Positions 10,700 to 45,932 of a DNA stretch of 64,000 nucleotides are shown piece after piece. Position 1 is the stretch's first letter. The number at the start of each line of letters is the position of its first letter. Source of the DNA: Clostridia bacterium (GTDB lineage: Bacteria; Bacillota; Clostridia; Oscillospirales; Acutalibacteraceae); contig JAGASD010000040.1 in assembly GCA_017621885.1 (NCBI GenBank), forward strand, positions 86,335 to 150,334, in the 5' to 3' direction. The notes beneath the pieces are model-generated. The model did not search any database, was not told the origin of the DNA, and worked only from the letters and a program-made list of their open reading frames with translations. The translations under genes were made by a program, and so were the position numbers.

Positions 10700-10819
10700 A
10701 TTACCAACCTCCTGCTAAAATACATACCAATTATAAACGATACAAAAAAATTATTCAATATACAAATATTAAAGTTACATGGATATAATCTAAAAGATAT
10801 GTTTTTTAACATCATAAAA

Positions 10820-10861
10820 ACAGACTTCTAATCGAACATTAAGTCAGATTTCGAAGTCTGT
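10820..10861 (-). terminator. Terminator-like hairpin, family member 1
   Basis: ACAGACTTC pairs with GAAGTCTGT after the stop of the MBL gene. The loop and right arm (CTAATCGAACATT, CAGATTTCGAAGTC) recur at 15717 and, less closely, at 17360. Confidence 0.65.
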
Positions 10862-10868
10862 TCACTGA

Positions 10869-11975
10869 TCAAAATAAATCCACTTTCAAATCAACCTGAC
10901 TCCCAATATTCTCCGTAACTATATGTACCAAACAATCATTCAGTATCAAATCCTTAATAACAGATGAATGCGGATGCCAATATTTATTCTTATAGCCAGC
11001 AGAAATAACATTGATTACATTTAATTCAGCTATTTTGCTATTGTAGTTATGATGTGACCCATGATGAGGAATCTGAACGCACCCAATATATTCCCAATAT
11101 TCATTATATGCATTTCTTAGATCTTTCCATTTTTGCGTTCCAGATGCATCATAGTCGCCCATATACAAGCAACCATTTTCTGTAAACGATTGACAACGAC
11201 AAGCACAAAAATAACGTTTAGGTATAGCGTAGCGTTGTCCGATACACCTGTTTTTGGTTCCGGAAAACAATGTCATTGAATTAGTATTAAAAGTTCCCTT
11301 GACTTGCTTATATGCTTCTTTTATTTTGGCTTTATCCTTTGGATAATTATTAATAAGCTCCTTTATTTTATCATCAGTTTTATCTATTCCACAATTAAAT
11401 ATTTGGGCAATAGCCTTTTTTAATTCATCAACGCGTTCTTGTTGTCTGAAATTAAAAGGAATCAAATTCCACTCAATATTTTCATCGAGAACAAAATTTT
11501 CTTCTACAACATCTTTTCCCGACGAAATATACCTTGTATCAGAATTATTTAAATTCTCGCTACCTACTGTTCTAACCTGATAAAGCATTGGAACATCATC
11601 AATGCCTAAGCTATTAATAGCATCAAGCGGATTATCAATAAACATATACAAAAAACTGTCTTTGGCTACTGATAATAATGCTTTCAGTTTTAAATATGCT
11701 TTATCTTTCGTAGTAACGAGTGGAAAAAACAAGTTGCATACCTTGCAATACTTTATCAAAAAGGGCAAACCGTTTATGTGATCCTCATCCAAATGCGATA
11801 TAAAAACAGCATCAATAATCTCTCCTCTTGAAAATTCATGTTTAATCTGCCGTTCAACAATTGATTGATCAGTTAAAGAACCACAATCATAAATAATTAT
11901 ATGCCTTCCATCTTTAAGATTAAATGTTTCTCTATAAAAAGCGCCCTGACCAACTGGCAAAAAACTGCGTAACAT
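10869..11975 (-). CDS. Metallo-beta-lactamase-fold hydrolase (ComEC/Rec2-like)
   Basis: The 368-residue protein carries the zinc-binding motif HLDEDH at residues 61-66 (FISHLDEDHINGL) and a late PHHGSHHNY near residue 305. Both are typical of the cytoplasmic ComEC/Rec2-type MBL domain, but there is no membrane channel, so it is a free enzyme. Enzymes of this branch often cut nucleic acids or nucleotides. It follows the kinase gene at 12093 on the same strand, with a hairpin after the stop. A nuclease effector is plausible but unproven. GGTGGAATGAT precedes the ATG. Confidence 0.8.
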   Translation of the reverse strand: MLRSFLPVGQGAFYRETFNLKDGRHIIIYDCGSLTDQSIVERQIKHEFSRGEIIDAVFISHLDEDHINGLPFLIKYCKVCNLFFPLVTTKDKAYLKLKALLSVAKDSFLYMFIDNPLDAINSLGIDDVPMLYQVRTVGSENLNNSDTRYISSGKDVVEENFVLDENIEWNLIPFNFRQQERVDELKKAIAQIFNCGIDKTDDKIKELINNYPKDKAKIKEAYKQVKGTFNTNSMTLFSGTKNRCIGQRYAIPKRYFCACRCQSFTENGCLYMGDYDASGTQKWKDLRNAYNEYWEYIGCVQIPHHGSHHNYNSKIAELNVINVISAGYKNKYWHPHSSVIKDLILNDCLVHIVTENIGSQVDLKVDLF

Positions 11976-12092: not shown

Positions 12093-14219
12093 TTAATAAA
12101 ATTCTCGTATTCTTTCTAACAATTCTTTCTCCTGCCTTGGTTCGAGATGATCCATACGTTTTGCGTGATTTGTTTCTAAATAAATCAACCATCCTTGCAG
12201 CATAGACATATAGTCATCATCCAAAGTGCTCAATTTAGAATACTTGCCCACATAACCATTGCCCGCATGCCATGTCTCTTGCCTAACAGGATAATAATTC
12301 AAATTTTCACCATTAACGACTTTTGCATATCCATTTTCGTCAATAACCAAAGTATTATGTTTTCTGTCGTCTGCTTTTTCCATTTCAATTTTGATTTCTT
12401 CTTTGGTAAATAAATGTTCAGGATTTCCACACCTTTGAATATCAAATGAAAAGAAAGCCGCACCGCAATCAACAAAATGATTTGCTTTGCAATAGTTAAT
12501 TAGCATTTTTTTACATTCTTCAATACAACTTAAAATCTCTTTTTTATCATATATTAGTTTGATTTCATCCATGTGATTTCTTTTTCTCTTCATATATCCA
12601 TCATTACACAGACAAAATTCACCCTCTATCAAGCTGTCAAAATCAAGTTTTCCATCATTGATTGTCAATGTTATATAATATGCGATATTGGTAGCTTCTT
12701 TAGTGTATTCTGAAACATCAAATTTCCAATTTTTAAATTCATCTCTTATAAAAGCTTCTACACACCTCGCTTTATTAATTTCAGGTTTATTGGAATCTTC
12801 TTTTATTCTTCCTTTAGCCTTATATTTAATATTCTTACTTTTAATAAGTTGATTTGTATATTCTCTAAACTCTTCATGAAAAAACTTACCATGACGTCCA
12901 TCATATGTTTCAGGTATTCTATTGTACGGTCCGCTTTTTAACACAAACAAAAACTTGCCTTTTAAATATCTCGCAACAACCTTATAACCGATAGGTAATT
13001 CTTTACCCGAATCATAATCATATACACCATATTGCTCATATTCCGCTGAGACATAATGTGCAGGATAATCTTCAACTAGTATTTCGTATTCAAAATCGGC
13101 AGAGTAAACAGGATTTAATTCTTTACACTCTAACAACAAATAATTCCACTCTTCGTTTTTATCAAATCTTTCAAAAAATAACGCTTTTGGCCTAACCAAG
13201 TTTATCTCTTTACAATCATCATAAATATAAATACATCCATCTTCATTTGCCAAACTCGCCTTTGAAAAGTCCTGTCCTCCAGCTGACGAAAACAACATAT
13301 GATTATGAGCTTGTGTTTTTGCCAGCACATTAAGAACAGAAACAATTTCAACAGGATTTCTCCAAATTATTGTTTCGCCTGAATTCATCAAAAAATATTT
13401 ATTCAAAAATTGCCATTCACTTCTTTGTGATTTGCTATAATCGTCGGATACTTCAAGCCATTTTAATAATTGTTTTTTAAAATCATCGATAGACGGACGC
13501 TTTTCAGGTGTATTATCAGTCGCGTTTTTTAATAATTCTTCAATTTCGACTAAATGTACCTCTTGAAGATGCTCATAATTTTTCAAACTATGTTTGCTAT
13601 CCGAAAAATCATACACCCCTTCAAACCCTGTTTCATCAAGCGACAATAACATCCACAAGGTTTTTGCCAATGAATATACATCGGCTTTCTTACCATCTGC
13701 TTTCTTAGGATTTCTTTTCATTTCCGGAGCTATTGTAAAAATAGCTCCTAACCCTCTATCTTCGCGAGTATAATTATTATCTCCATCCGGCAAATCTACT
13801 AATCCAAAATCTCCTATATAATATCTGTTATCATAAAAATACAAATTGCTTGGTTTAATATCTCTATGTGAAATATTTTTTGTGTGTAATTTTGATAATG
13901 TATTACAGATATCTATTATTCCTAATACAATTTCTCTAGGACTAGATTCATGTTCTTTTATATACTTAACTATGGGCTCAGCAATTGGCATCGTATATTC
14001 AAACTTATATTTAGAACTCCAAATAATTGGGATTATACCAACAATTTCTTTACAATTTTGTTTGATAACATCAATTTCATCTCTAAAACGAGATTTCTTT
14101 TCTCTATTTGCATTCTTATGAAGTTTTTTTAATGCAATAATCTTGTTATCATTTGTTTGAATTTCATAAACTGTTGCATTTCCCCCACTGCCGAGTTTTT
14201 TTGTTATATTATACTTCAA
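12093..14219 (-). CDS. Serine/threonine protein kinase with a large C-terminal domain
   Basis: The kinase domain spans residues 1 to about 265. It has a glycine loop GSGGNATV (10-17), the ALKK lysine (31/32), HRDIKPSN (118-125) and DFG (137-139), so it should be active. The remaining 440 residues are unrecognised, with no transmembrane or PASTA repeats, unlike housekeeping PknB kinases. The start is TTG with GAGGTGATTTCA upstream. It is encoded between an unknown helical protein and an MBL hydrolase on the same strand. Free kinases of this kind occur in phage-defence loci, where they phosphorylate host proteins after infection; that role is inferred here. Confidence 0.8.
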   Translation of the reverse strand: MKYNITKKLGSGGNATVYEIQTNDNKIIALKKLHKNANREKKSRFRDEIDVIKQNCKEIVGIIPIIWSSKYKFEYTMPIAEPIVKYIKEHESSPREIVLGIIDICNTLSKLHTKNISHRDIKPSNLYFYDNRYYIGDFGLVDLPDGDNNYTREDRGLGAIFTIAPEMKRNPKKADGKKADVYSLAKTLWMLLSLDETGFEGVYDFSDSKHSLKNYEHLQEVHLVEIEELLKNATDNTPEKRPSIDDFKKQLLKWLEVSDDYSKSQRSEWQFLNKYFLMNSGETIIWRNPVEIVSVLNVLAKTQAHNHMLFSSAGGQDFSKASLANEDGCIYIYDDCKEINLVRPKALFFERFDKNEEWNYLLLECKELNPVYSADFEYEILVEDYPAHYVSAEYEQYGVYDYDSGKELPIGYKVVARYLKGKFLFVLKSGPYNRIPETYDGRHGKFFHEEFREYTNQLIKSKNIKYKAKGRIKEDSNKPEINKARCVEAFIRDEFKNWKFDVSEYTKEATNIAYYITLTINDGKLDFDSLIEGEFCLCNDGYMKRKRNHMDEIKLIYDKKEILSCIEECKKMLINYCKANHFVDCGAAFFSFDIQRCGNPEHLFTKEEIKIEMEKADDRKHNTLVIDENGYAKVVNGENLNYYPVRQETWHAGNGYVGKYSKLSTLDDDYMSMLQGWLIYLETNHAKRMDHLEPRQEKELLERIREFY

Positions 14220-15763: not shown

Positions 15764-16723
15764 CTAAATTTCACTTAAACAACTCGTTAATGAGCTACTT
15801 TCTCTTTCAAACAGAACATCTATATATGCTTTAACAGTCCTTGCCATTTCAGCAATACTGCTTTTTTGTTTCTGCAAGCACACAGCATCAACACCGTCAA
15901 ACTCTTTTCTGATAGCAGCCATAGGTAATCTTGAAAAAATATAGAATTTAGATTTCACTAAAATATTGGGCTTTTCAGTTATAAGCTGCTCATATAAATC
16001 TCGCCCAAAATAGTCGAGTTCTTTTGTTTGCCATTTTTTCGATGGTTTTCTTGCAACATCAAGAACATAAACATCAACGTCCATATTGTGACTCTTATTG
16101 ATGACCTCTACTGAACTTTGACAAGGGAAAATACGAACAGAATACCGGTGTTCAGCATCAAAGAGCGTGTTCATTTCTTCTTTTAACATATCTAACTGTT
16201 CTTCCATATCATCTAGCAACACAATATTATATTTCCATGTTTGTTGATAGGTTTTTTTCTCATTTAACGAATTTTTCTTGCTATCAAGATAACATATTTC
16301 TTCTTTATAAACATCACTTATCACATTGTTAACTTTATCATTAACAGATGTTATAAACAATACAAACTGTTCCGCTAAAGATCTACATATACACTCTACA
16401 TCTATATAGTCGTTTGTCTGTATATCAAAATAATTAATAATAGTAACTTCATTACTATCATCAATATATTCTAAAAAAAATTGAAACAGCTTATTTTTGT
16501 CAATCGGAGAAGGAAAAGTTGCTTTCATGATTTGTGAAATCGGCTTGGAGCCATTGAATATCTTATATTGATATGCATCTGAACTGTATTTTCTTGTTGG
16601 TTCCTCAACAAAATATTCACTGCCGCCAGCTTTAAATAGTATTGTTATAAAGTGTGCATGATTTACAAAACGCTTTCTTCCTACAGAATCATATATGCCT
16701 TTACAAAAATCTTTAAATTCCAT
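15764..16723 (-). CDS. Protein with a receiver-like domain (predicted conflict-system sensor)
   Basis: The preferred start is the ATG at 16723, preceded by TTGAGGTGATTTTT; the longer reading has no Shine-Dalgarno. The product is 319 residues. The second half (residues ~175-310) looks like a CheY receiver fold: NIVLLDDMEEQLDMLKEE for the acidic pocket, VYVLDVARKP with the candidate phospho-Asp, and a late KSKFYIFSR strand. There is no DNA-binding domain. The N-terminal half is unrecognised. It is divergent from a holin gene 160 bases away, which may be its effector. Confidence 0.6.
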   Translation of the reverse strand: MEFKDFCKGIYDSVGRKRFVNHAHFITILFKAGGSEYFVEEPTRKYSSDAYQYKIFNGSKPISQIMKATFPSPIDKNKLFQFFLEYIDDSNEVTIINYFDIQTNDYIDVECICRSLAEQFVLFITSVNDKVNNVISDVYKEEICYLDSKKNSLNEKKTYQQTWKYNIVLLDDMEEQLDMLKEEMNTLFDAEHRYSVRIFPCQSSVEVINKSHNMDVDVYVLDVARKPSKKWQTKELDYFGRDLYEQLITEKPNILVKSKFYIFSRLPMAAIRKEFDGVDAVCLQKQKSSIAEMARTVKAYIDVLFERESSSLTSCLSEI

Positions 16724-16886
16724 AAAAATCACCTCAACAAGTTTTGCATGTCCAATAAAAGTCCAATAAGTCCAATATTTTCTTTTTAAAAGTTCATTGA
16801 TTACAATTCGGTATAACATTATACTTTATTCATAACCTTCACTAAATTATCACATGAATACTCATATTTTTAACAAAGGGGATGAT

Positions 16887-17285
16887 ATGGTGTTATTAGA
16901 ATTGTATTACAAAGCAACGAGTTTACTATCAAAGTTTTTTGGTGGTGCAGATGGTTTAATTTATGCACTTATAATTTTTATTTTAGTAGATCTGTTTTTC
17001 TCCGTACTATTATCTCTAATTAAAAGCAATACAAAAACATTCATTAACAAAAAAATTATCTGCAAAAAAATTGCAATGTTTTTTATTATCGGACTATCTA
17101 ATATTATTGATATTTATCTTGTGGATTCTATTAGTTACTTACGTACAATAACAATTCTCTTTTACATTGTCCACGAAGCTAGTTCAATATTAAAAAAATC
17201 AGTCAAGTTAGACTTACCCGTTCCTAAACCATTATTAATTTTTATTGAAAAACTTAAATCTGAAAGTAACAACCAAGGCAATTAA
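16887..17285 (+). CDS. Phage-type holin family protein
   Basis: The ATG at 16887 has AAAGGGG at proper spacing, so it is preferred over the ATG at 16854. The 132-residue protein has about three hydrophobic segments. It ends with the Phage_holin_4 pattern: SNIIDIYLV, then LRTITILFYIVHEASSILK, then KLDLPVPKPL. Such proteins make membrane pores during phage lysis. No endolysin, tail or other phage gene is nearby. It is divergent from a receiver-domain gene and next to a STAND ATPase, so it may have been recruited as a membrane-disrupting effector. That use is inference. Confidence 0.78.
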   Translation: MVLLELYYKATSLLSKFFGGADGLIYALIIFILVDLFFSVLLSLIKSNTKTFINKKIICKKIAMFFIIGLSNIIDIYLVDSISYLRTITILFYIVHEASSILKKSVKLDLPVPKPLLIFIEKLKSESNNQGN

Positions 17286-17652
17286 TATTTACTATGCATT
17301 TAATACTAACAAATCTAAAATAGTTATACTTAAAACATCTCTTATCATTTTATAAAAAGGCTTCAAAACCGAGCATCATAGTTCGATTTTGAAGTCTATA
17401 AACTTTTTATTCATCTTCTCCAAAATGTCTTTTTATAACACCAATAGATAAATTATAGTAAACTAATTTTATTATAATCTAATTTTCGATATTTTTCACT
17501 TGAAATGCAAAAATGCTGTTATTTTTTGCAAAAACGTTAATTTATTTATCAAATACTTATCAATAGCTATACAAATTTAAAGAGAATCATACAACAAGTC
17601 CAAACACATTACCCTAAAGTAAAATGTTTGGACTTGTATTGGTTTAAACTAA
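17286..17652. other. Gene-free gap with two hairpins
   Basis: The gap of 367 bases lies between convergent genes. It holds a stem-loop at 17360-17396 (GGCTTCAAAACCGA with TCGATTTTGAAGTC, family member 3) and a strong 13-bp terminator at 17594-17647. No ORF with a ribosome-binding site is seen. Confidence 0.6.
17594..17647 (-). terminator. Terminator of the STAND ATPase gene
   Basis: ACAAGTCCAAACA (17594-17606) pairs exactly with TGTTTGGACTTGT (17635-17647). It lies immediately after the stop of the 17653-21090 gene. Confidence 0.75.
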
Positions 17653-20600
17653 TTACTTATAAATTCTAAATATGTTTTTCAGAGCAGAATATAAACAGTT
17701 TTTTATCACTTTTGAATGATATGTTTTATAATAACTCCTAATTTCTTTTAAAATATCTTTTATCTCAGAATATTTTGAAACGCTCTTAGATAATGCAACC
17801 ATCGCTGTTGAAATACACACCGCTATCTTTTCGCTTTTATATTTTGGATAGATATAATTTCTTAATTCATTCATAAATTTGACTTTTTCTTCTTTTGAAT
17901 CAACATCAAATATGGCAACAGCTAATCCCGCTGAATAATATTCAGCGAATTCCATCTCTTTATACCTTTCAAATAAACATTTCAATTCATTCACAATAGC
18001 AATTAGTTTTTCACCTTCAACCATATTTGCATAAACAACTAAAGAACTTCCATATTGCTTATAAATCTCTATTGATTCAGTATATTTGTCAATTAGTTTA
18101 TCTTGGAATTTGCTAAGCACACCCAGCCCCTCAGATTCATCATCCAGGTTGTCGATATAATTAAATAAAGCTTTTGCATACTGTACAGCTATATCTAAAT
18201 CATTATTACAATCAAAAGCATCCTCAATTTTCTTCAATATTTTTAATTGCTCGCTCTTATCATTTGTATCAATTGTAGAATTAGCAAGTGTTGTGATATA
18301 AGATAACAAAATATTCCTAGAATTATATTTGTTATGTAAATTTAGTATTTTTTCTGCTAATTCATTCTCTTCAGATATGGTGTTCATATACAATATTTTA
18401 TTTTGCAAAACGCAGGAATATTCAGTTGCTACATTCTCTGAGTCATATTCCAAAACAATCTTATCAGCATTATACATAATCTCCGGATAAACATCCATCA
18501 AGTTGATTACGCTCAAACCATTTGCAACTGCTTTTAAATATGATTTCGCTATTTCATCACATTTCCATTCATTTAGTTTATCTTGTAAATCATCCAATAT
18601 GTTTTTAATTAAATGTCTGTCAGCAGTTTTTGAACTTTGATTGACGCGAATCGAACAATATTTTGAAACAAATTCTATCGAGCTATACTTCTCATCTAAA
18701 ACTTTCTTTGCCTTTTCCACCAATGGTTGAATAGAATCATATGAATCAAGTTTTAAAGCTTCATTTACTAACATTGACATATACTCATGAGCAATATCCT
18801 GTGTATCAAACTCGTCAAGAAAGCTATAAACCTCATTTGACATTTCCTCTATAAAATCAGCAGAAAAGTCAAAGACAGTTGCATTTAATAAGAGCTGAGA
18901 ATAACGCAAAACTGTATTAAGGGTTTTATGATTATTCAATATTGATTTAGCATACACTAAATCCTCGGACATTTCTTCGATGGATATATCTTTTTCAGCT
19001 TTATTGATAAGCGTCAAAATCATTTGTTCAATAATTTCATCAGTCTGATTGCTTTCAACTATAGATTTTGCAATTTTCACATACACATCAATTTCGTCAA
19101 TTGGTAAATCTATTATAATATTAGCAATAGCTGAAACGTAAAAACATTTAATTTCAACTGAACTATTACTTTTTGTTATTTCTTCTATCCCTTCTATATA
19201 TCTTTTTTTGGTTTCCACATCTATTTTAATAGCAGTAGCATTATATAATATTTTAGCATAAGCGAGTTCTATTTCCGCATTTTTATGAGATATACAAAGC
19301 AACTTATCTATTATTTCATCAATATCTTCTGAATTTTTAGCAACAGAAGACCAATTCAGTAATGAGTTCACATAAACATCTGCAATATCACTACTATTGT
19401 ATTTTTCTAAAAGTTCATATAATTCTTTCACAATTTGAAAAATACAGTCATCATCTTTTGCCGATATATTAACTAATAATTGTGCATATTGTATTGCAAG
19501 CTCAGGCGATTCTGTTTCTTCAATTTCATCAAAGATTTTCTTTAAATCTTCAGACAAAATATCCATTTCTTCAGATTCATGCACTGCATTAATTAAAAAA
19601 CCTATATATCTCTCATAAAGCCTATTTGTAGCATATTTATGAACTATTGGTTCGATTTTATGTGCTAGACAAAGAATGTCAAATGACTTATTCATAACTG
19701 ACGATGCATTAACAAATGTATTTATCAACGAATATGCATCATCTTCATTTGATATTGTATTTAATAGTTGTTCTATCAAAAACTGCACCTCAGACAGTTC
19801 AAACCAATCACTTATGCAGCGTTCTAAGAAAGAATAAAAATAATTTTGGCTAAGCAAAGCTGTCAACCACTTTTTTCTTTGAGAAGAACTCAGATTGTAA
19901 AAAACCTTTACAAATAAAACTTCACCAATAATATCAGGAACTAATGGACTAACAAATAAATCATCTGTTTCTTTTTCGCACAAATCCTTTAAGAATTCCT
20001 TCATTGGCCTTGTGTCTATATGAAAATCCAATTCGTTTTTCAGCAAATCTATATAATCATTTAAGATTTCAATATTAGAAGTTTCAAAATCAACACCCCC
20101 AAATGCTGTTGAGAATGCTAAAATGATTTTACCATTTGTAGATATTTTTTTTGAATACTTCTGTTCAATTATTTTTTCGCTATGGTCTAAGCAACGTTTA
20201 ATTAAATCAATCGCTTTCCAATGTGACAAATCATGATTATCTAAGTATGCATCTGCTGCAAACAATAGAAATAGGCAACGTAGGTTTTCCTCAACTTTTC
20301 CACTGTCTGCAATACTGGACAAACTTATATCTTTAACATGGGCTATAATTTCTCTTTTTTGAAATTCTTTTAACTTTTTTTCAGAAAAATCGCTCAATAT
20401 ATTTGAGTAGACTGAATATTGCAACGGATGTTCTTTTAAATTCAAAGAAGTTGGATTATACTCTATTTCTTCAACATCATCACTTTTGTATTTCAACCTA
20501 CTATACCAAGAATCTATATTACTTTCATTCTTTTTGTATGCTGCACGTTCAATTAATAAGATTCTGATTTTCCCAGTCTGTTTCGATTTACGAATCAAAT

Positions 20601-21090
20601 TAACAAATTGTGCTATTTCATCGACAAACGAACCTGCATAATCAAATATAAATAAGCAGGGTTTAACCAAAGAATAATCACTGTATTTTCTACATATTTT
20701 TATTGTGTCATTTATATCTAACCATACAGTATCCCAACCATTTTTCTTATAAAGTGTAGCTAAATACAACGCAAATTTACTCTTACCAATTCCACCATCT
20801 CCAGTTATAGACCACAACAATACACTTCTCTCATCATTCATAAATTCATCAAATAAAAACTTTTCATTAGTACGCCCATGAAATGCAATTTTGGGATTTC
20901 TATAACTGAATTTATTTTTATAAATCGGCGTAGGAATTATCGCATTACTTACATAATGTTGAAAACTAATTTCGTTTGCAAACTCTTTTACAATTCCATT
21001 TTCGTCAAAAACTACGGTAGCTATATTTCCATTGCCAGTTTGTTCTATATTAATATCATGTACTATTTTATCTTTCTTTTTATTGAGCAT
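17653..21090 (-). CDS. STAND/NLR-like P-loop ATPase with N-terminal amyloid-type motif
   Basis: This 1,145-residue protein has three parts. Residues 13-30 hold INIEQTGNGNIATVVF, matching Q-x-G-x-x-N-x-A at 17-24. Residues ~70-340 are a STAND-type ATPase with Walker A GDGGIGKS at 97-104, a Walker-B-like CLFIFDYAG, and a sensor strand IRILLIERAAY ending in Arg. The rest (~400-1,145) is a long superhelical array of about 40-residue helical repeats resembling TPR. This is the layout of bacterial NLR-like immune receptors: the array senses, the ATPase oligomerises and the N-terminus recruits an effector. The next gene upstream encodes a membrane protein with the same motif, separated by only 12 bases. 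Confidence 0.8.
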   Translation of the reverse strand: MLNKKKDKIVHDINIEQTGNGNIATVVFDENGIVKEFANEISFQHYVSNAIIPTPIYKNKFSYRNPKIAFHGRTNEKFLFDEFMNDERSVLLWSITGDGGIGKSKFALYLATLYKKNGWDTVWLDINDTIKICRKYSDYSLVKPCLFIFDYAGSFVDEIAQFVNLIRKSKQTGKIRILLIERAAYKKNESNIDSWYSRLKYKSDDVEEIEYNPTSLNLKEHPLQYSVYSNILSDFSEKKLKEFQKREIIAHVKDISLSSIADSGKVEENLRCLFLLFAADAYLDNHDLSHWKAIDLIKRCLDHSEKIIEQKYSKKISTNGKIILAFSTAFGGVDFETSNIEILNDYIDLLKNELDFHIDTRPMKEFLKDLCEKETDDLFVSPLVPDIIGEVLFVKVFYNLSSSQRKKWLTALLSQNYFYSFLERCISDWFELSEVQFLIEQLLNTISNEDDAYSLINTFVNASSVMNKSFDILCLAHKIEPIVHKYATNRLYERYIGFLINAVHESEEMDILSEDLKKIFDEIEETESPELAIQYAQLLVNISAKDDDCIFQIVKELYELLEKYNSSDIADVYVNSLLNWSSVAKNSEDIDEIIDKLLCISHKNAEIELAYAKILYNATAIKIDVETKKRYIEGIEEITKSNSSVEIKCFYVSAIANIIIDLPIDEIDVYVKIAKSIVESNQTDEIIEQMILTLINKAEKDISIEEMSEDLVYAKSILNNHKTLNTVLRYSQLLLNATVFDFSADFIEEMSNEVYSFLDEFDTQDIAHEYMSMLVNEALKLDSYDSIQPLVEKAKKVLDEKYSSIEFVSKYCSIRVNQSSKTADRHLIKNILDDLQDKLNEWKCDEIAKSYLKAVANGLSVINLMDVYPEIMYNADKIVLEYDSENVATEYSCVLQNKILYMNTISEENELAEKILNLHNKYNSRNILLSYITTLANSTIDTNDKSEQLKILKKIEDAFDCNNDLDIAVQYAKALFNYIDNLDDESEGLGVLSKFQDKLIDKYTESIEIYKQYGSSLVVYANMVEGEKLIAIVNELKCLFERYKEMEFAEYYSAGLAVAIFDVDSKEEKVKFMNELRNYIYPKYKSEKIAVCISTAMVALSKSVSKYSEIKDILKEIRSYYKTYHSKVIKNCLYSALKNIFRIYK

Positions 21091-21102
21091 AGTAGTTTCC
21101 TT

Positions 21103-21411
21103 TTATTTCGCGTTTCCTATTGATGCTGTATTAGAATTTCCTTCTTGCTGGATGTTACCTTCACTTCCAGCAAAAATTTTAGCATCATTATTATCTCCCT
21201 GCTGAACAATAGAACTATTACTTTTTTTCTTGTTTATTAATTCAACAATAACCGGAATCATTGAAACAACAATTGTAGCTATCGCTTCAATAACTGCTAT
21301 CGTAACTGTAGTTTCCAACTCAAAATGCAAGCACAAAATAACAGTTAACAATGTTATAACTATTCCTGTTAAGGCAATTATAATAGTAGATATGATTGTT
21401 TTCTTTTGCAT
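21103..21411 (-). CDS. Small membrane protein with two amyloid-type motifs (candidate effector)
   Basis: The start at 21411 has TTTTGGAGGAATAATT upstream; the longer reading from 21450 has none. The 102-residue protein has two membrane segments (residues ~5-30 and 34-57) and a polar tail. The tail carries two Q-x-G-x-x-N-x-A units: Q70-A77 (QQGDNNDA) and Q89-A96 (QEGNSNTA). The STAND ATPase encoded next has one such unit at its N-terminus. The layout resembles receptor/effector pairs joined by amyloid templating, with the membrane part acting as a pore. That mechanism is inference. Confidence 0.7.
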   Translation of the reverse strand: MQKKTIISTIIIALTGIVITLLTVILCLHFELETTVTIAVIEAIATIVVSMIPVIVELINKKKSNSSIVQQGDNNDAKIFAGSEGNIQQEGNSNTASIGNAK

Positions 21412-21428: not shown

Positions 21429-22835
21429 TCAAGATAAATGAACTTTCCAAGTGCCTTTTTTATCTGAACCTTCCCGTTCTATAACGCCAAGTTTTTTTAG
21501 TTCGGATATTATATTTGAAACGGTTGTTCTGCTACAACCCATCAAGTTGGAAATTTCTGTTGTTGTTATAGCCGGATTTTCCATAACTATTGCTATGAGT
21601 TGTTTCTGTTTTTCTGTAAAGTTTTCTGTAAAGTTTTCTGTAAAGACAGATTTATCTGTTTGCTTTTTTTGAACAGTAATTGCGTTTCCGTTCTCATCAT
21701 ACTGTATTTCATTTCCGTCCCAATCTATATTCGCTTTAATTTGGAGCATTATTCCCGTTGCATCAATTTCATAGGTAGGTCTTTGAAGTCCTGCATTTTC
21801 GCAAGCAGTACAAATCTTATCAATTCCCCTACCCCAACTTTCAATATATCCCGCAACAAAGAAAGTATTTGCTATAAGCGGATTGTACGGCTGTGACGGA
21901 TGCTTTGAAAACAGTTTTTCAAGTGTCCACATTTCAGGGAGCTTTCCGTTATTATAAATATAAATCTTATCCTTATAAACACTTATCTGAATCGGTATTC
22001 CGCTTACATATTGCTTGTGAGCAACAGCATTAAATATAGCTTCACGAAGTGCGGCTTCCGGATACGGATAAGACTCCACTCGTTGAAATCCATCATAAGA
22101 AATCCACGCTTTCATATATTTATGCTGCAAAATTTCCATAGTTTTATCAACTTGCTCAATAAGCGAACCGTGAATTTCATCCTGGAAACGAAGTTCAGAA
22201 TCACTTTCAAAGAAACCTATTTTAATATATGCACCTGTAATATACTTTTCAGGATTTTCAGCAAACAGCAAAATCGCCGCTTGAGTTAAATAATCATTTT
22301 GTATCAGCCTTAAATTTTGGAGAATGACTTTGTTTTCATCCTCTAAAATTGATGCATCAATTCTTTCCTTTTTAGCAGCTTTTTTCTTAAAAACCTTAAA
22401 TGCTTTTTCACTCAAATCATCAATAGAAACATTAGGTATAAGAGAAGCATCCCAAGTAACACCGTTTTTTCTGTTAAAAAACTCCTGTAAGGCTATTCCG
22501 TTTAATTTCTGAATGGTACTTCCGCTTCTATAATAATACACACCCTTTAAGCTTACACCTTGCGGATATTCAGGAACAATAATCTCAATATAATCGTCAC
22601 CGTTATTTTCGTAATAATTAACATCTGCAATTATTCCCATAGAATCTTTAATTTTATTAGGCAAATCTTCAAGGAGTTTTTTTGCATTATTTAAGCCAAT
22701 GGGATTTCCGTTATCGTCCTTACCGATATATAGAGTTCCACCCTGTGCATTTGCAAAGCCGCAAATCCATTGAAGATACTCATCTTTCCAAATTGCTTTC
22801 CATTCAACATTCTGTTTTTCAGGCATTTTCTTCAC
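21429..22835 (-). CDS. AlbA_2/Schlafen-type ATP-binding regulator with winged HTH
   Basis: The 468-residue protein starts with an AlbA_2 domain (VEWKAIWKDEYLQWICGFAN, then GGTLYIGKDDNG). An HATPase_c_4-like middle contains LREAIFNAVAHKQY and ESWGRGIDKI, and a C-terminal winged helix (residues ~405-465) contains TTTEISNLMGCSRTTVSNII. Proteins of this type are transcriptional regulators, often in accessory loci. Three exact 12-bp repeats (21610-21645) encode FTENFTENFTE in the linker. The stop overlaps the longer reading of the membrane-protein gene downstream, so they may be cotranscribed. Confidence 0.85.
   Translation of the reverse strand: MKKMPEKQNVEWKAIWKDEYLQWICGFANAQGGTLYIGKDDNGNPIGLNNAKKLLEDLPNKIKDSMGIIADVNYYENNGDDYIEIIVPEYPQGVSLKGVYYYRSGSTIQKLNGIALQEFFNRKNGVTWDASLIPNVSIDDLSEKAFKVFKKKAAKKERIDASILEDENKVILQNLRLIQNDYLTQAAILLFAENPEKYITGAYIKIGFFESDSELRFQDEIHGSLIEQVDKTMEILQHKYMKAWISYDGFQRVESYPYPEAALREAIFNAVAHKQYVSGIPIQISVYKDKIYIYNNGKLPEMWTLEKLFSKHPSQPYNPLIANTFFVAGYIESWGRGIDKICTACENAGLQRPTYEIDATGIMLQIKANIDWDGNEIQYDENGNAITVQKKQTDKSVFTENFTENFTEKQKQLIAIVMENPAITTTEISNLMGCSRTTVSNIISELKKLGVIEREGSDKKGTWKVHLS
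21610..21645. repeat. 12-bp tandem repeat x3 inside the AlbA_2 gene
   Basis: TTTTCTGTAAAG occurs three times in a row, encoding Phe-Thr-Glu-Asn units in the linker before the winged helix. An in-frame slippage site of this kind changes linker length without a frameshift. Confidence 0.9.
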
Positions 22836-22852: not shown

Positions 22853-23440
22853 TTAACCTTCAAATCCCGTCTGTACGGACTCAATATCTGTTTTTAATGT
22901 ACTGTTCATTTCATCAATATCAAAATCACGGTAATCCCAGAGCTCATATTCACCAGTAGGTGATAAATACATCTGCTCAGATTTATTCTTTTCGTCAATC
23001 TGCTTAATTACTTCACCAAAGTCATCAGAGAACATATTATCAAGAATACCTTTACCTTGTCCAGCAACAATTCTAGGATATTTCAGACTCGTTCCCTTTT
23101 CCATATCTGAGATTTCTTTCAATGTTATGACAAATTCCTGCTCACAACCGTAATCATAAACCATTTTCATAACAGAACCTATTTCAAGTCCCATTTTATT
23201 AAGGCTTATTGTTGTGGGGTCAATGTTATTATCTTTTTCACATTCACCACATAAATCTATTTCATAGTGATTGCCGTTGTATTCAATGAAGAATAAATGA
23301 TTGGCAAGAGTATCAAAGGAAACCAAAACAAGGTAAGCAAGTTTTGATAACAAATAATTACCTGAAACTTCTACTTCACGCCATATTTTTTCTTCATAGC
23401 CTTTATAACCGATTAAAAATTTATATACATTTGCTTTCAT
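22853..23440 (-). CDS. Plasmid pRiA4b ORF-3 family protein
   Basis: The probable start is the ATG at 23440, just after the stop of the XRE gene (23445), giving a 195-residue product beginning MKANVYKFLIG. The block YKFLIGYKGYEEKIWREVEV and the later HLFFIEYNG match the beta-rich pRiA4b ORF-3 fold found on plasmids and in IS1096-type elements. Its function is unknown. The gene is coupled to the double-HTH gene and probably forms an operon with it. Confidence 0.75.
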   Translation of the reverse strand: MKANVYKFLIGYKGYEEKIWREVEVSGNYLLSKLAYLVLVSFDTLANHLFFIEYNGNHYEIDLCGECEKDNNIDPTTISLNKMGLEIGSVMKMVYDYGCEQEFVITLKEISDMEKGTSLKYPRIVAGQGKGILDNMFSDDFGEVIKQIDEKNKSEQMYLSPTGEYELWDYRDFDIDEMNSTLKTDIESVQTGFEG

Positions 23441-23444
23441 AATA

Positions 23445-24173
23445 TTACACCATTTCTCCCTTTGCAGGTATGTATTCATAGTCACCTTTCAGTAAAAACT
23501 CATATTGTTCCCGAGCTTTTGCAAATTCTTTTCCGGTTGTCGGATGTGGACACTCCTGAACAGCAAAAAGCTTTTGGTTTTCATCAAATGACTGTTCAAA
23601 TCCGAATGCGCAATAATGTTCAAACTCTTTCTTTTCGGTATTCCACAGTGATTGAGCCGCCCAACATCCGTTACCACGTTTACCGCAACTATAACAATAT
23701 ATTATTTTCTTAGTCTTAACAGGCATCAAATCACCAAATGCTTTTCCCAAAGACTGATTATATTCTTCTCCAAGCCTTAACAACTTTGCGTGAGATGCTG
23801 CAGATATATTATTGCCATTTACAAATGACTTAACTGTATTTAACGATAAACTTGTTGTCTTTGCTATGTCACTGAGAGATAAATTGTTTTTACTCATATA
23901 CTCATTCAGAACAGCTCTTGCTATCGAATTCAACTCGTCCGTTTTATTGTTAATACTCTTAACATCGGTCTGTTTTGGAATACAGGTAACAATATCACCG
24001 ATGTCACATTTCAACTCTTCACAAATTCGCACTATTACATCAAAAGTTACAGGTTGATTGTTGCGCATCTTTGCGAATGTTGAACTTGATGCTCCAATTT
24101 GCTGCATCAATTCTTTTTGAGTAATATTTAGTTCAGCTAATTTATCAAAAAGCTTATAAAAATATACAGCCAT
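23445..24173 (-). CDS. Regulator with two HTH domains and a Cys cluster
   Basis: The 242-residue protein has an XRE-like HTH at residues ~1-65 (LNITQKELMQQIGASSSTFAKM) and a second HTH at ~85-130 (LSLSDIAKTTSLSLNTVKSFV). It also has a C-terminal CYSCGKRGNGC...HYC cluster that may bind zinc. AGGTCCGAA precedes the ATG. This pairing is unusual for a simple repressor and suggests a regulator that reads a metal or a partner. It is the last gene before the recombinase block, so it may be host DNA or the edge of the element. Confidence 0.7.
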   Translation of the reverse strand: MAVYFYKLFDKLAELNITQKELMQQIGASSSTFAKMRNNQPVTFDVIVRICEELKCDIGDIVTCIPKQTDVKSINNKTDELNSIARAVLNEYMSKNNLSLSDIAKTTSLSLNTVKSFVNGNNISAASHAKLLRLGEEYNQSLGKAFGDLMPVKTKKIIYCYSCGKRGNGCWAAQSLWNTEKKEFEHYCAFGFEQSFDENQKLFAVQECPHPTTGKEFAKAREQYEFLLKGDYEYIPAKGEMV

Positions 24174-24278
24174 TTCGGACCTCCTACAAAATTATACGAT
24201 TATTATATCATTGCAGAAGACTCATTGTCAATATCTTTTCTATGTTCGAAATTATTGATTATCTGAATTCATAAAAAA

Positions 24279-24319: not shown

Positions 24320-25942
24320 TCATATTATGTTTTCTTCAGCCTGAAAGCCACCCTTTAATACAACTATTATTTTATTTTCTTTCAAAACCCTTATGCACTC
24401 AATCAATCGCCTGACAATCACATCATCATATTCATTGAACGATACATCCGTATTGGTAAACATTTTTTCAAGTCTCTCAAATTCACTGTCATTTGTCTCG
24501 TTTGATTCCGCACTGATTTTTGCAACTTGAAGTTTTTCTCGTAAGATTTTCACTTGTTCAAAATTATTCTTTATTTCATTAAGAAACCTGTCAGTATCAC
24601 CACTTGTTGAACCCATAAGTTCCATAAGGTGTTCTGATTCTTCCTCTAATTTAAGTATTTGGTTTTCAAGAGAATATGCGTCGCAGGAATCATCACTTCC
24701 GGTAATTGCATATTTCAAATTGCTTCGCAGAAGATTTACGGTTTCCTCTTTATTTTCAAACATCTTATTAAGTGCTCTGCAAATTGCTGAATGTAATTTT
24801 GTTTCTTCAATGCCAATGGAAGAACAACTTTTGCTACCATTTTCAGAACGATTTATACATCTCCAATAATATTGATGTTCACCGTTTTTCTTTGTCTTAC
24901 CGTTTCTTTTGTAATTACTACCGCATTCACCGCACACAAGAAGCTCAGATAACGCAAATTTACCGCTATATTTGCCCTGTTCCGTTTTCGCAAGAGAAGA
25001 TTTCTTATGCTTACTTCCCCGTCTTGCAATCTCCATTTGAACTCTGTTAAATTTATCTCTGTCAATTATAGCCGGATGATTGTTACTTACAAGATACTTT
25101 GGCAACTCTCCCCTGTTAACTTTGGTCTTTTTGCTTATAGGGTCAGAACAATATGTTTTTTGCAACAATAAGTCCCCTGCATACTTTTCATTTTTAAGTA
25201 TTGTATCAATTACCTTTTTATTCCAAGCCTTTCCGCCTTTATATGTCACGAAACCGTTATCCTGCAGATACCTTTGAATCTGCTCCAAACTGTTTCCGTC
25301 AAGAAATCTATCAAATATAATTCGTACAACCTCTGCCTGTTCGGGTATTATCTCCGGGACACCGTTAGCACCTCTCATATATCCAAAACAACTGAAATTG
25401 GAACAAAACTTACCGTTTTTCATACTCTGATGAATACCCCATTTTACATTGGCACTTATGTTTTCACTTTCAGCCTGTGCAATAACGCTGAATAAACCGA
25501 TAAGCATTTCGTTTTCAGCTTTAAGAGAATCAATAGCCTGTTCCTCAAAATACACACCTATGTTCATTGCTCGGAGCTTTCTTACCCAACTGAGGCTATC
25601 AACAGTATTTCTTGCAAAACGAGAAATTGATTTGGTTAAAATCATATCAATTTTGCCTTTTTCACAATCTCTCATCAAACGCAAGAAATCTTTTCGCTTT
25701 GAAGTAACAGTACCTGTAATGCCTTCATCCGCATAAACACCTGCAAATGTCCAACTCGGATTTTTTGCAATCGCTTCTGTATAATAAGCTATCTGTGATT
25801 CATAACTGTTTAACTGTTCCTCTTCATCGGTGGATACACGACAATATGCCGCAACACGAAGTTTGGTAGCTGCAGAGTTATTTTTAATTAACAATGGATT
25901 CGCTTCAATTTTCGTTACTCTTTTTTCTAAATTGACTTGCAT
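24320..25942 (-). CDS. Large serine recombinase (third of three)
   Basis: The ATG at 25942 follows GGAGAAGCAGAAA and gives 540 residues. The resolvase domain has the catalytic Ser at residue 37 (AAYCRVSTDE) and the usual later motifs (YADEGITGT, SISRFARNT). A recombinase domain follows, then a zinc ribbon (CGECGSNYKR, CINR) and a C-terminal coiled coil. Such enzymes cut and join att sites, excising and integrating elements. It overlaps the preceding recombinase gene by 38 bases, and a terminator follows. Confidence 0.9.
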   Translation of the reverse strand: MQVNLEKRVTKIEANPLLIKNNSAATKLRVAAYCRVSTDEEEQLNSYESQIAYYTEAIAKNPSWTFAGVYADEGITGTVTSKRKDFLRLMRDCEKGKIDMILTKSISRFARNTVDSLSWVRKLRAMNIGVYFEEQAIDSLKAENEMLIGLFSVIAQAESENISANVKWGIHQSMKNGKFCSNFSCFGYMRGANGVPEIIPEQAEVVRIIFDRFLDGNSLEQIQRYLQDNGFVTYKGGKAWNKKVIDTILKNEKYAGDLLLQKTYCSDPISKKTKVNRGELPKYLVSNNHPAIIDRDKFNRVQMEIARRGSKHKKSSLAKTEQGKYSGKFALSELLVCGECGSNYKRNGKTKKNGEHQYYWRCINRSENGSKSCSSIGIEETKLHSAICRALNKMFENKEETVNLLRSNLKYAITGSDDSCDAYSLENQILKLEEESEHLMELMGSTSGDTDRFLNEIKNNFEQVKILREKLQVAKISAESNETNDSEFERLEKMFTNTDVSFNEYDDVIVRRLIECIRVLKENKIIVVLKGGFQAEENII

Positions 25943-26786
25943 TTTCTGCTTCTCCATTCGTAATTTTTGCATTATTTATAAAAACAGTAATAATTCTACC
26001 GGCAGGCTGAATTATAATCTGCTTTATGTACTCTTTCATTATCTTATAATCAATTTTATCAACCGAAGAAATTTCATCCTTTAATTCTTCTGTTAATTCC
26101 CCATTATCATAATCACAACAATCAAACCGTACTTTTGCTCCTTGCAAAATACACTTTGCAACAACAGAAAAATCGAGCTTAGGTTGCTCTAACAACCTTA
26201 TCAATTCATTTTCTTCTTTTGTGACATCTATTGTCGGCATATATTGAGAATCAGCAACAACATTGAGCAAATCAGGATTTTCTATTACCCGATTAAGATT
26301 GCTTCTAACTGCATCTTCAAGAATTGCATCATCAATATAAACCGAACATTTACATCCTTTTGAGCACATCCACTTTTCTCGTGCACCCCAAGTATTTACC
26401 CTTTTAAATCTGCTACCGCATTTGCCGCATACTGCTATTTCTCTGACCAATTCAACTTCCGGTGTATGCGTTTCTTGTTTACACGATTTTTTCTCTTTCA
26501 TAGCTTTGGCTTGATTAAACATAGATGATGAAATAATCATAGGATAAATTTCATTACCCATATATTTTTCGTTCTCAATCATTCGGTTAATGGTATTCTT
26601 ATTCCATTTCACTTCATCTTGAAAATAAGCAACTTTTTCCTCGGTAAGCATAGTAGCAATACTATTTAGTGTTTTACCTTCAACATATAAAGAAAAAACT
26701 TTTTTTACTACTTCTGATTCTTCAATGTGAATAACTGTTTTTCCGTTTTTCACTTGATAACCGTAAAGTGTTGTTCGTATTGCCAT
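25905..26786 (-). CDS. Recombinase subunit lacking the catalytic resolvase domain
   Basis: The 293-residue protein begins directly in the recombinase domain (MAIRTTLYGYQVKNGK) and has the zinc ribbon (CGKCGSRF, CSKGC) and C-terminal region. It entirely lacks the 140-residue catalytic domain with the active-site Ser. The start is clean (AGAGGTGATATAG then ATG), immediately after the stop of the first recombinase. It is therefore an intact gene for a shortened protein, not a broken copy. It probably binds att DNA as a partner of the two full enzymes, though that is inference. Confidence 0.85.
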   Translation of the reverse strand: MAIRTTLYGYQVKNGKTVIHIEESEVVKKVFSLYVEGKTLNSIATMLTEEKVAYFQDEVKWNKNTINRMIENEKYMGNEIYPMIISSSMFNQAKAMKEKKSCKQETHTPEVELVREIAVCGKCGSRFKRVNTWGAREKWMCSKGCKCSVYIDDAILEDAVRSNLNRVIENPDLLNVVADSQYMPTIDVTKEENELIRLLEQPKLDFSVVAKCILQGAKVRFDCCDYDNGELTEELKDEISSVDKIDYKIMKEYIKQIIIQPAGRIITVFINNAKITNGEAENASQFRKKSNEN

Positions 26787-28343
26787 CTATATCACCTCTG
26801 CCATTTTAACTTCAAGATGCAAACCACCTTTTAGTATAAACATTACTGTTTTCTCACTGCCAACAATGACTTTATCAACTATTGCTGAAAACAGCGGATT
26901 ATCAAAACGCAATATCACTTTCGGATATTCGTCTAATATTTCTTTCAAAACCTTTAAACCTTCAATAAGTCTTTCTTCCTCATCGGCATTTAAAAGTTTC
27001 ACTCTTTTTCCTCTTAATTCAGTTATTTTATATTTTAACTCTGATGTTCGTTCAAGATAAGAAACATCATCAATAATACCCTTAGTGTGAAGTTCCGTAT
27101 AAGTATTATTTTTCTTACAAAGACTTGCAATTTCAGCATCTATCTGTGAAATCTCATTATTTTGTCCCGAAGCTTTTTCACGAAGATTTAATAACTGACT
27201 TAATGTTTTATCAAGCACCTCTTTCTCAAATCTTCGCAACTTGTTATACATTACTACAAATGCTTTTTTCAAATCTTCTTCACTGATGTTTTTACCGCCA
27301 CAGGAATGTCCTGCCATCTTTTTGCGTGAACAAACCCAATATACAACATCATTCTGATTTTTCTTTTTATACGACCAACCGCACTCTTTACATTCAATCA
27401 ACCCTGTAAAGAAATGCTTCTGCGGAGTTTTTCTTTCCGTTGTAACCTGTTTCATTCTTATTTGAACAAGTTCAAAATCTTCCCTAGTCACAATCCCTTC
27501 ATGAGAATTTGCAACATAGTACCTATCAAGTTCACCTTTGTTCGGTACATTTCTTAATGGTAACATTTGTGGAGTATATGTCTTTTGTAAAAGGCTATCG
27601 CCGATATATTTTTCATTAGTTAAAATATATCTTATTCCCGGTATTGACCACTTGCCCGATGCATTTGGAATCCTTTCATCGTTTAATATTGCAACAATTT
27701 TGCCAATACCATTACCCGAAAGATAAAGTTTGAAAATCCGCTTTATTATTTCTGCTTCTTCAGGAATAACCGAAAGATGGCACTCTTTATCAAGTTTATA
27801 CCCATAAGGAGCATTGCAAGTAATGAACTCACCATTCTCCATTTTCATACGGATAGCCGTTGCTACCCTTTTGGAGCCAGCCAATGCTTCACTCTGAGCA
27901 AAAGCGCTTTTCACATAAAGAATAAGTTCTGAATTCATTGTCTTGGTATCAATATTGTCATTTTCAAATAACACCGTAACACCAAAAGAATTAAGTGTTC
28001 TTATAGACTCAAGACATTCAAGTGAATTTCTTGCGAATCTTGAAACACTCTTTACAAATATGCGGTCTAATTTTCCGTTAGATGCATCTTTCATCATTCT
28101 TTTGAACTCGTCACGCTTATTTACGCAAGTTCCGGTTATTCCCTCATCAGCATATATATCAACAAACTCCATTTCAGCGTTGGACATAATATATTCGGTA
28201 TAATATCTCAACTGTGCCGAAAAAGAATTTGATTGGTCATCAGAATCGGTACTGACACGGCAATAAGCAGCCACCTTTTGTTTTTTCTCTTGATTTATTT
28301 GTGCTATTGTTGGTTTAATAACCTTTACTACTCTCTCTGCCAT
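26787..28343 (-). CDS. Large serine recombinase (first of three)
   Basis: The ATG at 28343 follows CGAGGAGGTGATGAT, giving 518 residues. The catalytic Ser is residue 31 (AAYCRVSTDS). YADEGITGT and SVSRFARNS follow, then the recombinase domain, zinc ribbon (CKECGWSYKK, CSRK) and coiled coil. It leads the tandem of three. The neighbours are two short ORFs, an orphan mazF and a candidate structured RNA upstream on the same strand. Confidence 0.9.
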   Translation of the reverse strand: MAERVVKVIKPTIAQINQEKKQKVAAYCRVSTDSDDQSNSFSAQLRYYTEYIMSNAEMEFVDIYADEGITGTCVNKRDEFKRMMKDASNGKLDRIFVKSVSRFARNSLECLESIRTLNSFGVTVLFENDNIDTKTMNSELILYVKSAFAQSEALAGSKRVATAIRMKMENGEFITCNAPYGYKLDKECHLSVIPEEAEIIKRIFKLYLSGNGIGKIVAILNDERIPNASGKWSIPGIRYILTNEKYIGDSLLQKTYTPQMLPLRNVPNKGELDRYYVANSHEGIVTREDFELVQIRMKQVTTERKTPQKHFFTGLIECKECGWSYKKKNQNDVVYWVCSRKKMAGHSCGGKNISEEDLKKAFVVMYNKLRRFEKEVLDKTLSQLLNLREKASGQNNEISQIDAEIASLCKKNNTYTELHTKGIIDDVSYLERTSELKYKITELRGKRVKLLNADEEERLIEGLKVLKEILDEYPKVILRFDNPLFSAIVDKVIVGSEKTVMFILKGGLHLEVKMAEVI

Positions 28344-28408
28344 ATCATCACCTCCTCGATTTACATCCACATTATATCTGTATATTTCTAAAAAATCCCA
28401 TGTGCGAT

Positions 28409-45902: not shown

Positions 45903-45932
45903 GATTATAATACGAACCGAAGGATGTGCGTT

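What the first reader, a model, noticed from the sequence alone, without database searches (positions are those of the whole stretch)
17653..21411. STAND/NLR-like ATPase and membrane partner joined by an amyloid-type motif
Three copies of Q-x-G-x-x-N-x-A occur in two adjacent genes: residues 17-24 of the 1,145-residue ATPase (QTGNGNIA) and residues 70-77 and 89-96 of the 102-residue membrane protein (QQGDNNDA, QEGNSNTA). The motif is the core of the curlin amyloid repeat. Adjacent receptor and effector genes with a matching amyloid motif are the hallmark of bacterial amyloid-signalling immune systems. Here the effector would be a two-helix membrane protein. A previously undescribed subtype is possible.
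Basis: partly seen in the sequence, partly recalled or inferred. Interest (0 to 1): 0.88.

Follow-up and report, generated by a model that had tools for sequence, protein, structure and literature searches.

The report
STAND receptor paired with membrane effector
A bacterial immune-type sensor protein and a tiny membrane protein encoded next to it carry the same short curli-like sequence, probably the plug by which the sensor switches on the membrane protein, as in known amyloid-signalling immune systems but with an unusual motif and partner.

Summary
The 1,145-aa ATPase carries one QxGxxNxA motif at its N-terminus, and the adjacent 102-aa two-helix membrane protein carries two in its tail. 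The DNA pattern for it occurs 19 times in six frames of the 2.63-Mb genome; three lie here within 185 bp. The tail alone scores above Pfam's cut-off for the curlin repeat; the ATPase N-terminus hits only that family, sub-threshold. The ATPase resembles nSTAND5-type STAND NTPases.
The main new evidence is from relatives. Some carry SIR2, TIR or trypsin-like domains at the same N-terminal place. Two with a short N-terminus (L022, L008) instead follow a 60–72-aa protein with a hydrophobic segment, whose tail matches that STAND's own N-terminus through a different motif; a third (L033) is weaker. The L008 and L022 STANDs are 38% identical, yet their motifs differ and each matches its own partner, as expected for cognate motif signalling. 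Amyloid formation, toxicity and phage defence are untested. I judge it a new variant of a known kind (BASS/NLR amyloid signalling): curlin-like motif, no Bell domain seen, probably outside the multicellular bacteria where BASS motifs were described.

The parts
17653..21090 (-). STAND NTPase (nSTAND5-like), 1145 aa: short motif-bearing N-terminus (about 72 aa), NTPase, C-terminal region aligning with the repeats of relatives
   Evidence: Pfam nSTAND_NTPase5 2e-6, 28.2 bits, below its 34-bit cut-off; Walker A GDGGIGKS at 97-104 and DY, ER and PD..GE columns invariant in 13 aligned proteins, window included. No Pfam repeat family hits the window protein itself
21019..21042 (-). receptor-side motif QTGNGNIA, residues 17-24
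   Evidence: Curlin_rpt is the only Pfam hit of the N-terminus, E=0.024, below cut-off
21103..21411 (-). 102-aa two-helix membrane protein, proposed effector
   Evidence: hydrophobic segments 10-28 and 38-56, positive flanks on both ends; Shine-Dalgarno GGAGG
21181..21204 (-). effector-side motif copy 1, QQGDNNDA (residues 70-77)
21124..21147 (-). effector-side motif copy 2, QEGNSNTA (residues 89-96); best match to the receptor motif, ungapped score 41
21429..22835 (-). AlbA_2 / HATPase_c_4 / winged-HTH protein, 17 bp upstream in the same direction; probably a regulator, not shown to be part of the core
   Evidence: nothing like it was seen by eye beside the L008 pair
22853..23485 (-). pRiA4b ORF-3-like protein in the same run of genes
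   Evidence: PF07929 2.9e-23
23445..24173 (-). XRE/Cro-type HTH regulator, first gene of the putative operon
   Evidence: HTH_26 2.1e-19
24202..24231 (-). 12-of-12 sigma-70 consensus promoter-like site upstream of the HTH gene
   Evidence: 45 promoter-like sites found in the region against a mean of 38.9 in shuffles; this is the only perfect one
17594..17637 (-). strong hairpin just after the STAND stop, perhaps the transcription end
   Evidence: -24.3 kcal/mol, z -5.4, 0 of 200 shuffles as stable; no strong T run, and the terminator scan did not list it

Best explanation
A two-gene immune-type switch. The STAND protein is the sensor: its C-terminal region is taken to bind an infection signal, and ATP-driven oligomerisation then brings its N-termini together. 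Each N-terminus carries one curlin-type strand motif (IEQTGNGNIATVVF). Clustered motifs would template the two matching repeats in the cytoplasmic tail of the two-helix membrane protein, stacking them into a cross-beta or beta-arch fibre. This clusters the transmembrane hairpins, which then disrupt the membrane and arrest or kill the cell. Shown: gene arrangement, STAND-type NTPase, two hydrophobic helices, matched motifs, the same layout with other matched motifs in relatives, known effector domains at the same place in other relatives. Inferred: ligand sensing, oligomerisation, amyloid nature, membrane damage, phage defence.
For: Motif clustering: 3 of 19 genome sites within 185 bp; 3 of 200,000 simulations. 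Curlin_rpt profile in the tail (over the cut-off when the tail is given alone) and, sub-threshold, in the STAND N-terminus. Cognate matching: tail against own N-terminus scores 41 (window), 37 (L008), 67 (L022); shuffles reaching these: 12, 11 and 0 of 5,000, and p 0.0066, 0.0034, 0.0002 with 45-residue ends. For these three the true partner is the highest score in its row and column. Among 344 adjacent same-strand ORF pairs, 4 reach 41: the window pair, two split repeat proteins and one GC-rich ORF pair. L008 and L022 STANDs are 38% identical, but their N-terminal 28 residues score only 20 against each other and their tails 17. Effector domains in relatives: SIR2_2 in L025 and L031, TIR_2 in L057, a sub-threshold trypsin match in L019. 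Hydrophobic segment fused to the STAND: L029 and the more remote L059. Both flanks of the window hairpin are positive, so the tail is predicted cytoplasmic. Other defence-type genes lie nearby.
Against: Few pairs: three clear; a fourth (L033) is beaten or equalled by 237 of 5,000 shuffles at default gaps and 22 of 5,000 at looser gaps; a fifth (L042) shows no match (p 0.61). L008's segment is only borderline hydrophobic (1.44 against a threshold of 1.6). Of seven short-N-terminus STANDs (five of 34 relatives with E<=1e-9 and an intact 5' end, plus window and L008), two (L038, L045) show no convincing small partner. Whole-ORF curlin score is under the cut-off, and the six-frame genome scan does not find it at E 0.01. 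No homologue of the 102-aa protein in the plasmid or phage collections; genomes were not searched with it. No PADLOC or NCBIfam family covers the pair. No structure could be predicted. Nothing here shows fibre formation or toxicity.
Confidence: 0.6

Rival explanations
1. The matched motif is real but works as an ordinary docking strand: the STAND oligomer binds the membrane protein tails by beta-strand addition or a small beta-solenoid, without a self-propagating amyloid.
For: Same sequence evidence as the main reading; only one copy on the receptor and two on the effector; the small proteins of the L008 and L022 pairs hit no amyloid family in Pfam at E 1.
Against: The curlin repeat is the unit of a true amyloid (established knowledge, not tested here), and the N-terminus/C-terminus layout is that of known amyloid-signalling pairs (PMC7889193, passages).
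Confidence: 0.25
2. Chance: a STAND gene and a small membrane gene in one operon whose low-complexity Q/G/N/S ends look alike.
For: Whole-ORF curlin score is just below the cut-off; the STAND side is weak (E 0.024); shuffle p for the window pair alone is about 0.001-0.007 depending on gaps and ends.
Against: Clustering of three motifs and cognate matches in related loci with other motifs.
Confidence: 0.1
3. A secreted curli-type surface amyloid.
For: Curlin_rpt is a family of secreted fibre proteins (established knowledge).
Against: No CsgG in the genome at E 0.01 while 4 of 14 control genomes ring; tail predicted cytoplasmic; the partner gene encodes a STAND-type NTPase.
Confidence: 0.02

Closest known systems
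Bacterial amyloid signalling sequences (BASS1-10), Bell + NLR pairs (Dyrka et al. 2020, not seen; known here through passages of PMC7889193, PMC8086366, PMC9815663 and PMC12261475)
   Same: Adjacent genes; motif at the receptor N-terminus and effector C-terminus; several unrelated motif types used by otherwise similar pairs; membrane-directed effector.
Fungal HET-S/NWD2-type NLR amyloid signalosomes (PMC4344463, start of abstract in the search listing; details recalled)
   Same: NLR with an N-terminal prion motif templates the C-terminal motif of a membrane-active effector encoded next door.
   Different: Unrelated motif, no HeLo domain, bacterial.
Curlin repeat proteins (PF07012)
   Same: QxGxxNxA-type repeat; tail scores over the Pfam cut-off when given alone.
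   Different: One or two copies at protein ends, intracellular by prediction, no CsgG found.
nSTAND5-type STAND proteins with fused SIR2, TIR or trypsin-like domains
   Same: Related NTPase core; in the SIR2 form L007 the C-terminal region also aligns.
   Different: The window protein has a short motif plus a separate membrane gene where those have a fused domain.

Membership tests
STAND NTPases (nSTAND5) | P-loop STAND NTPase domain | tested here: met
   nSTAND_NTPase5 2e-6, 28.2 bits, under the 34-bit cut-off; Walker A and other columns invariant in 13 aligned proteins. Met by homology, not by the curated cut-off.
STAND NTPases (nSTAND5) | C-terminal repeat sensor | tested here: inconclusive
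   C-terminal region aligns with relatives, of which L014 and L025 carry TPRs; the window protein itself has no Pfam repeat hit
BASS/NLR amyloid-signalling pair | Adjacent NLR and effector genes, same direction | tested here: met
   12 bp between the genes
BASS/NLR amyloid-signalling pair | Matching motif at receptor N-terminus and effector C-terminus | tested here: met
BASS/NLR amyloid-signalling pair | Motif belongs to BASS1-10 | not testable with these tools
   No BASS profiles or supplementary files available
BASS/NLR amyloid-signalling pair | Effector carries a Bell (or CHAT/TIR) domain | tested here: inconclusive
   Two hydrophobic helices take up most of the 59 residues before the tail; no effector domain in Pfam (SLATT_4 at E 0.34 only); no Bell profile to test
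BASS/NLR amyloid-signalling pair | Motif forms amyloid and cross-seeds | not testable with these tools
   Needs peptides
Curlin repeat (PF07012) | Score over the curated cut-off | tested here: inconclusive
   19.4 bits for the whole ORF, 23.4 for the tail alone, cut-off 20.7; STAND N-terminus 15; genome scan negative at E 0.01
Curli system | CsgG export channel in the genome | tested here: not met
   0 of 1 genome at E 0.01; assembly about 94% complete
Known antiphage systems (PADLOC-DB 2.0) | Model hit for the pair | tested here: not met
   Only Csm2 at E 0.38 for the STAND, none for the 2TM protein

The most novel reading that the evidence does not exclude
A distinct class of amyloid-signalling immunity in Clostridia and their kin: STAND sensors coupled to mini-transmembrane effectors through interchangeable cognate cross-beta motifs, one of them a curlin repeat used inside the cell as a signal plug, with receptor and effector motifs switching together between orthologues.
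Probability: 0.4. Interest if true: 0.82.

Novelty: new variant of a known kind. Interest (0 to 1): 0.64.

Why it matters
If true, NLR amyloid signalling is not confined to multicellular bacteria, does not need a Bell-type effector, and uses cognate motif pairs that change together, giving a built-in code of signalling specificity. The curlin repeat, known from surface fibres, would double as an intracellular immune signal. Three small pairs (window, L008, L022) make the specificity question directly testable with peptides and swapped tails in laboratory strains.

Tried and rejected
Scans of viral contigs, plasmids and phages gave no further pair. The curlin family search over 394 genomes of the order gave one weak hit (L005, E 0.01), which lies antisense to a larger ORF and was rejected. 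Of the 16 other genome sites of the QxGxxNxA pattern, four lie in the stretches I fetched (L077, L078, L079): three are not in an ORF of 60 aa or more that shows the motif, one is in the linker of a lipoprotein-like protein. The other 12 were not inspected. Of the 10 new hits of the phylum scan I looked at 8: one STAND with a SIR2-like N-terminus by eye, the rest more distant NTPases. L042's 138-aa partner looks Bell-like by eye (no test) and shows no tail match. A surface-curli reading was rejected. Literature: two searches, for curlin repeat with NLR and for amyloid signaling with Clostridia and NLR, returned 0 papers; the top listings showed none on this combination. The library lacks most subscription journals, and Dyrka et al. 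2020 was not seen. PHROGs was not searched.
Full report
Observation. The two genes and three motif copies are exactly as reported. The 102-aa start at 21411 has a GGAGG in front, and the STAND gene follows 12 bp after its stop with its own AAGGA. The DNA pattern for QxGxxNxA occurs 19 times in six frames of the 2.63-Mb assembly, 7 times for the reversed control; three are here. In 3 of 200,000 simulations did any three of 19 random sites fall within 185 bp. Window ORFs of 40 aa or more hold no other copy.

Profile evidence. Against all of Pfam, the small protein's best hit is Curlin_rpt (E 0.001, 19.4 bits, cut-off 20.7). The 43-residue tail alone scores 23.4 bits (E 5.9e-5), over the cut-off; the 36-residue STAND N-terminus hits only the same family (15 bits, E 0.024). 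Giving the ends alone favours them, and a six-frame scan of the genome did not find the family at E 0.01, so I treat this as good but not conclusive. Tail repeat 2 and the receptor motif are the closest (NIQQEGNSNTASI / NIEQTGNGNIATV, ungapped score 41).

The receptor. The NTPase matches nSTAND_NTPase5 below its cut-off. Relatives are sparse; counting its own genome, matches came in 3 of 394 genomes of the order with the single protein, 5 of 394 with a nine-row profile, 4 of 391 of the class with a four-row profile, 12 of 388 of the phylum (many of them short remote matches), and 1 of 22 of the genus (11 of the 22 are at least 90% complete). So the gene looks accessory.

What sits at the N-terminus in relatives. 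Pfam finds SIR2_2 in L031 and L025, TIR_2 in L057 (a more remote relative, E 6e-6) and a sub-threshold trypsin match in L019. L007, L068 and L081 look SIR2-like by eye but their N-termini were not scanned. The closest relative, L014, has some 220 residues ahead of its NTPase. In one search, of 35 loci with E<=1e-9, L015 is cut at its 5' end; of the other 34, five have 75 residues or fewer before the NTPase. Two of these five (L022, L033) have an adjacent small ORF with a segment of hydropathy 1.6 or more, against one (L029) of the 29 with longer N-termini; L029 has its own hydrophobic N-terminus. L042 has a 138-aa neighbour without such a segment, and L038 and L045 have no convincing neighbour. 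The window and L008 add two more short-N-terminus cases, both with a small partner, though L008's segment is borderline (1.44). The window and L008 suggested the comparison, so they are not an independent test.

Cognate matching. L022 (title: uncultured Eubacterium): a 72-aa protein ending ...QHHIQTDGGNFIGGDNNGTTL, overlapping a STAND with QRHINTGGGNFIGGD at its N-terminus. Own-partner scores are 41, 37 and 67; at default gaps the highest score with a wrong partner in the same row or column is 27; with looser gaps it is 38 (L022's tail against the window N-terminus), against 47, 43 and 67 for the true partners. Shuffles as good: 12, 11 and 0 of 5,000 at default gaps; p 0.0066, 0.0034, 0.0002 with 45-residue ends. 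L033 is weaker (237 of 5,000; 22 of 5,000 with looser gaps, tried after seeing the pair; p 0.14), and L042 shows nothing (p 0.61). The L008 and L022 STANDs are 38% identical, while their N-terminal 28 residues score 20 and their tails 17. So the motif differs between related receptors on both partners at once. Among 344 adjacent same-strand ORF pairs from the window and loci over 7 kb, the window pair ranks fourth; the first two are split repeat proteins and the third a GC-rich ORF pair. L008 is tied at 37 with one other pair. The L022 pair did not enter this list, probably through the overlap filter.

Topology. The window protein has two strongly hydrophobic segments (10-28, 38-56) with positive residues on both flanks, which by the positive-inside rule places the tail in the cytoplasm. 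L022 and L033 have one segment with positive residues after it. No CsgG was found.

Setting. Five genes run in one direction from a perfect promoter-like site at 24231-24202: HTH regulator, pRiA4b ORF-3-like, AlbA/HATPase/HTH protein, membrane protein, STAND; a strong hairpin follows, not listed by the terminator scan. Nearby are a kinase with similarity to MAD6 (padloc 6.9e-29; NCBIfam MADS6 4.8e-19, 68 bits against a cut-off of 460) and an LmuA-like protein (padloc 3.9e-6). On the upstream side lie a large serine recombinase (24320-25972), two more recombinase-like ORFs by eye, and conjugation genes, with AbiH and an NTPase/Mrr-type nuclease among them. None of this shows that the pair acts against phages.

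Mechanism and standing. I take the pair to work like NLR amyloid-signalling systems: receptor oligomerisation, motif templating, clustering of a membrane effector. [quoted passage not shown]). The ASMscan paper uses CsgA only as a control, unrelated to NLRs (PMC12261475, passages). Passages of PMC8195603 and PMC8086366 showed nothing on this combination. I did not see Dyrka et al. 2020, and BASS profiles were not available, so membership in BASS1-10 is untested. L022's GGNFIGGD may be close to a known motif; one search gives only that the pattern ARD is found at the C-terminal end of BASS2.

Verdict. Matched-motif coupling of a STAND to a mini membrane effector is likely; amyloid nature is plausible; immune function is inferred. 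New variant of a known kind.

Noticed in passing
window 12093-14219 (-): Ser/Thr kinase with a long C-terminal region, best PADLOC match mad6 (6.9e-29) and NCBIfam MADS6 at 68 bits, cut-off 460.
   Followed up: partly
window 15764-16819 (-): Protein whose residues 33-186 match Lamassu LmuA (3.9e-6); its C-terminal half looks receiver-like by eye (no Pfam match).
   Followed up: partly
window 16854-17285 (+): Phage_holin_4_1 protein (2.8e-23) convergent with the STAND gene, some 370 bp from its end.
   Followed up: no
window 41377-42237 (+) and 45924-47051 (+): AbiH (1.9e-44) and an NTPase with a C-terminal Mrr_cat nuclease (3.3e-28), both against the direction of the conjugation genes: perhaps defence cargo of an integrative element.
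   Followed up: partly
window 24320-28370 (-): Three successive recombinase-like ORFs at the edge of the conjugative element; only the first (24320-25972) was scanned, the middle one seems to lack the N-terminal catalytic part.
   Followed up: no
L059:5425-8811: Caulobacterales STAND protein (remote relative) with a hydrophobic segment, a linker and NVVSNVEAGGDVTISQI ahead of the NTPase: perhaps membrane effector, motif and receptor in one chain.
   Followed up: no
L042:5398-5814: 138-aa protein 3 bp before a related STAND; Bell-like by eye, no Pfam match over cut-off and no tail match to the STAND.
   Followed up: partly
L019:5044-5379: 111-aa ORF directly before a STAND protein with a weak trypsin-like N-terminus, perhaps a protease-associated partner.
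   Followed up: no
window 8687-11975 (-): Metallo-beta-lactamase-fold protein (10869-11975) followed in the same direction by an HATPase_c_3 protein (8687-10699) near the defence-type genes; possible further system.
   Followed up: no
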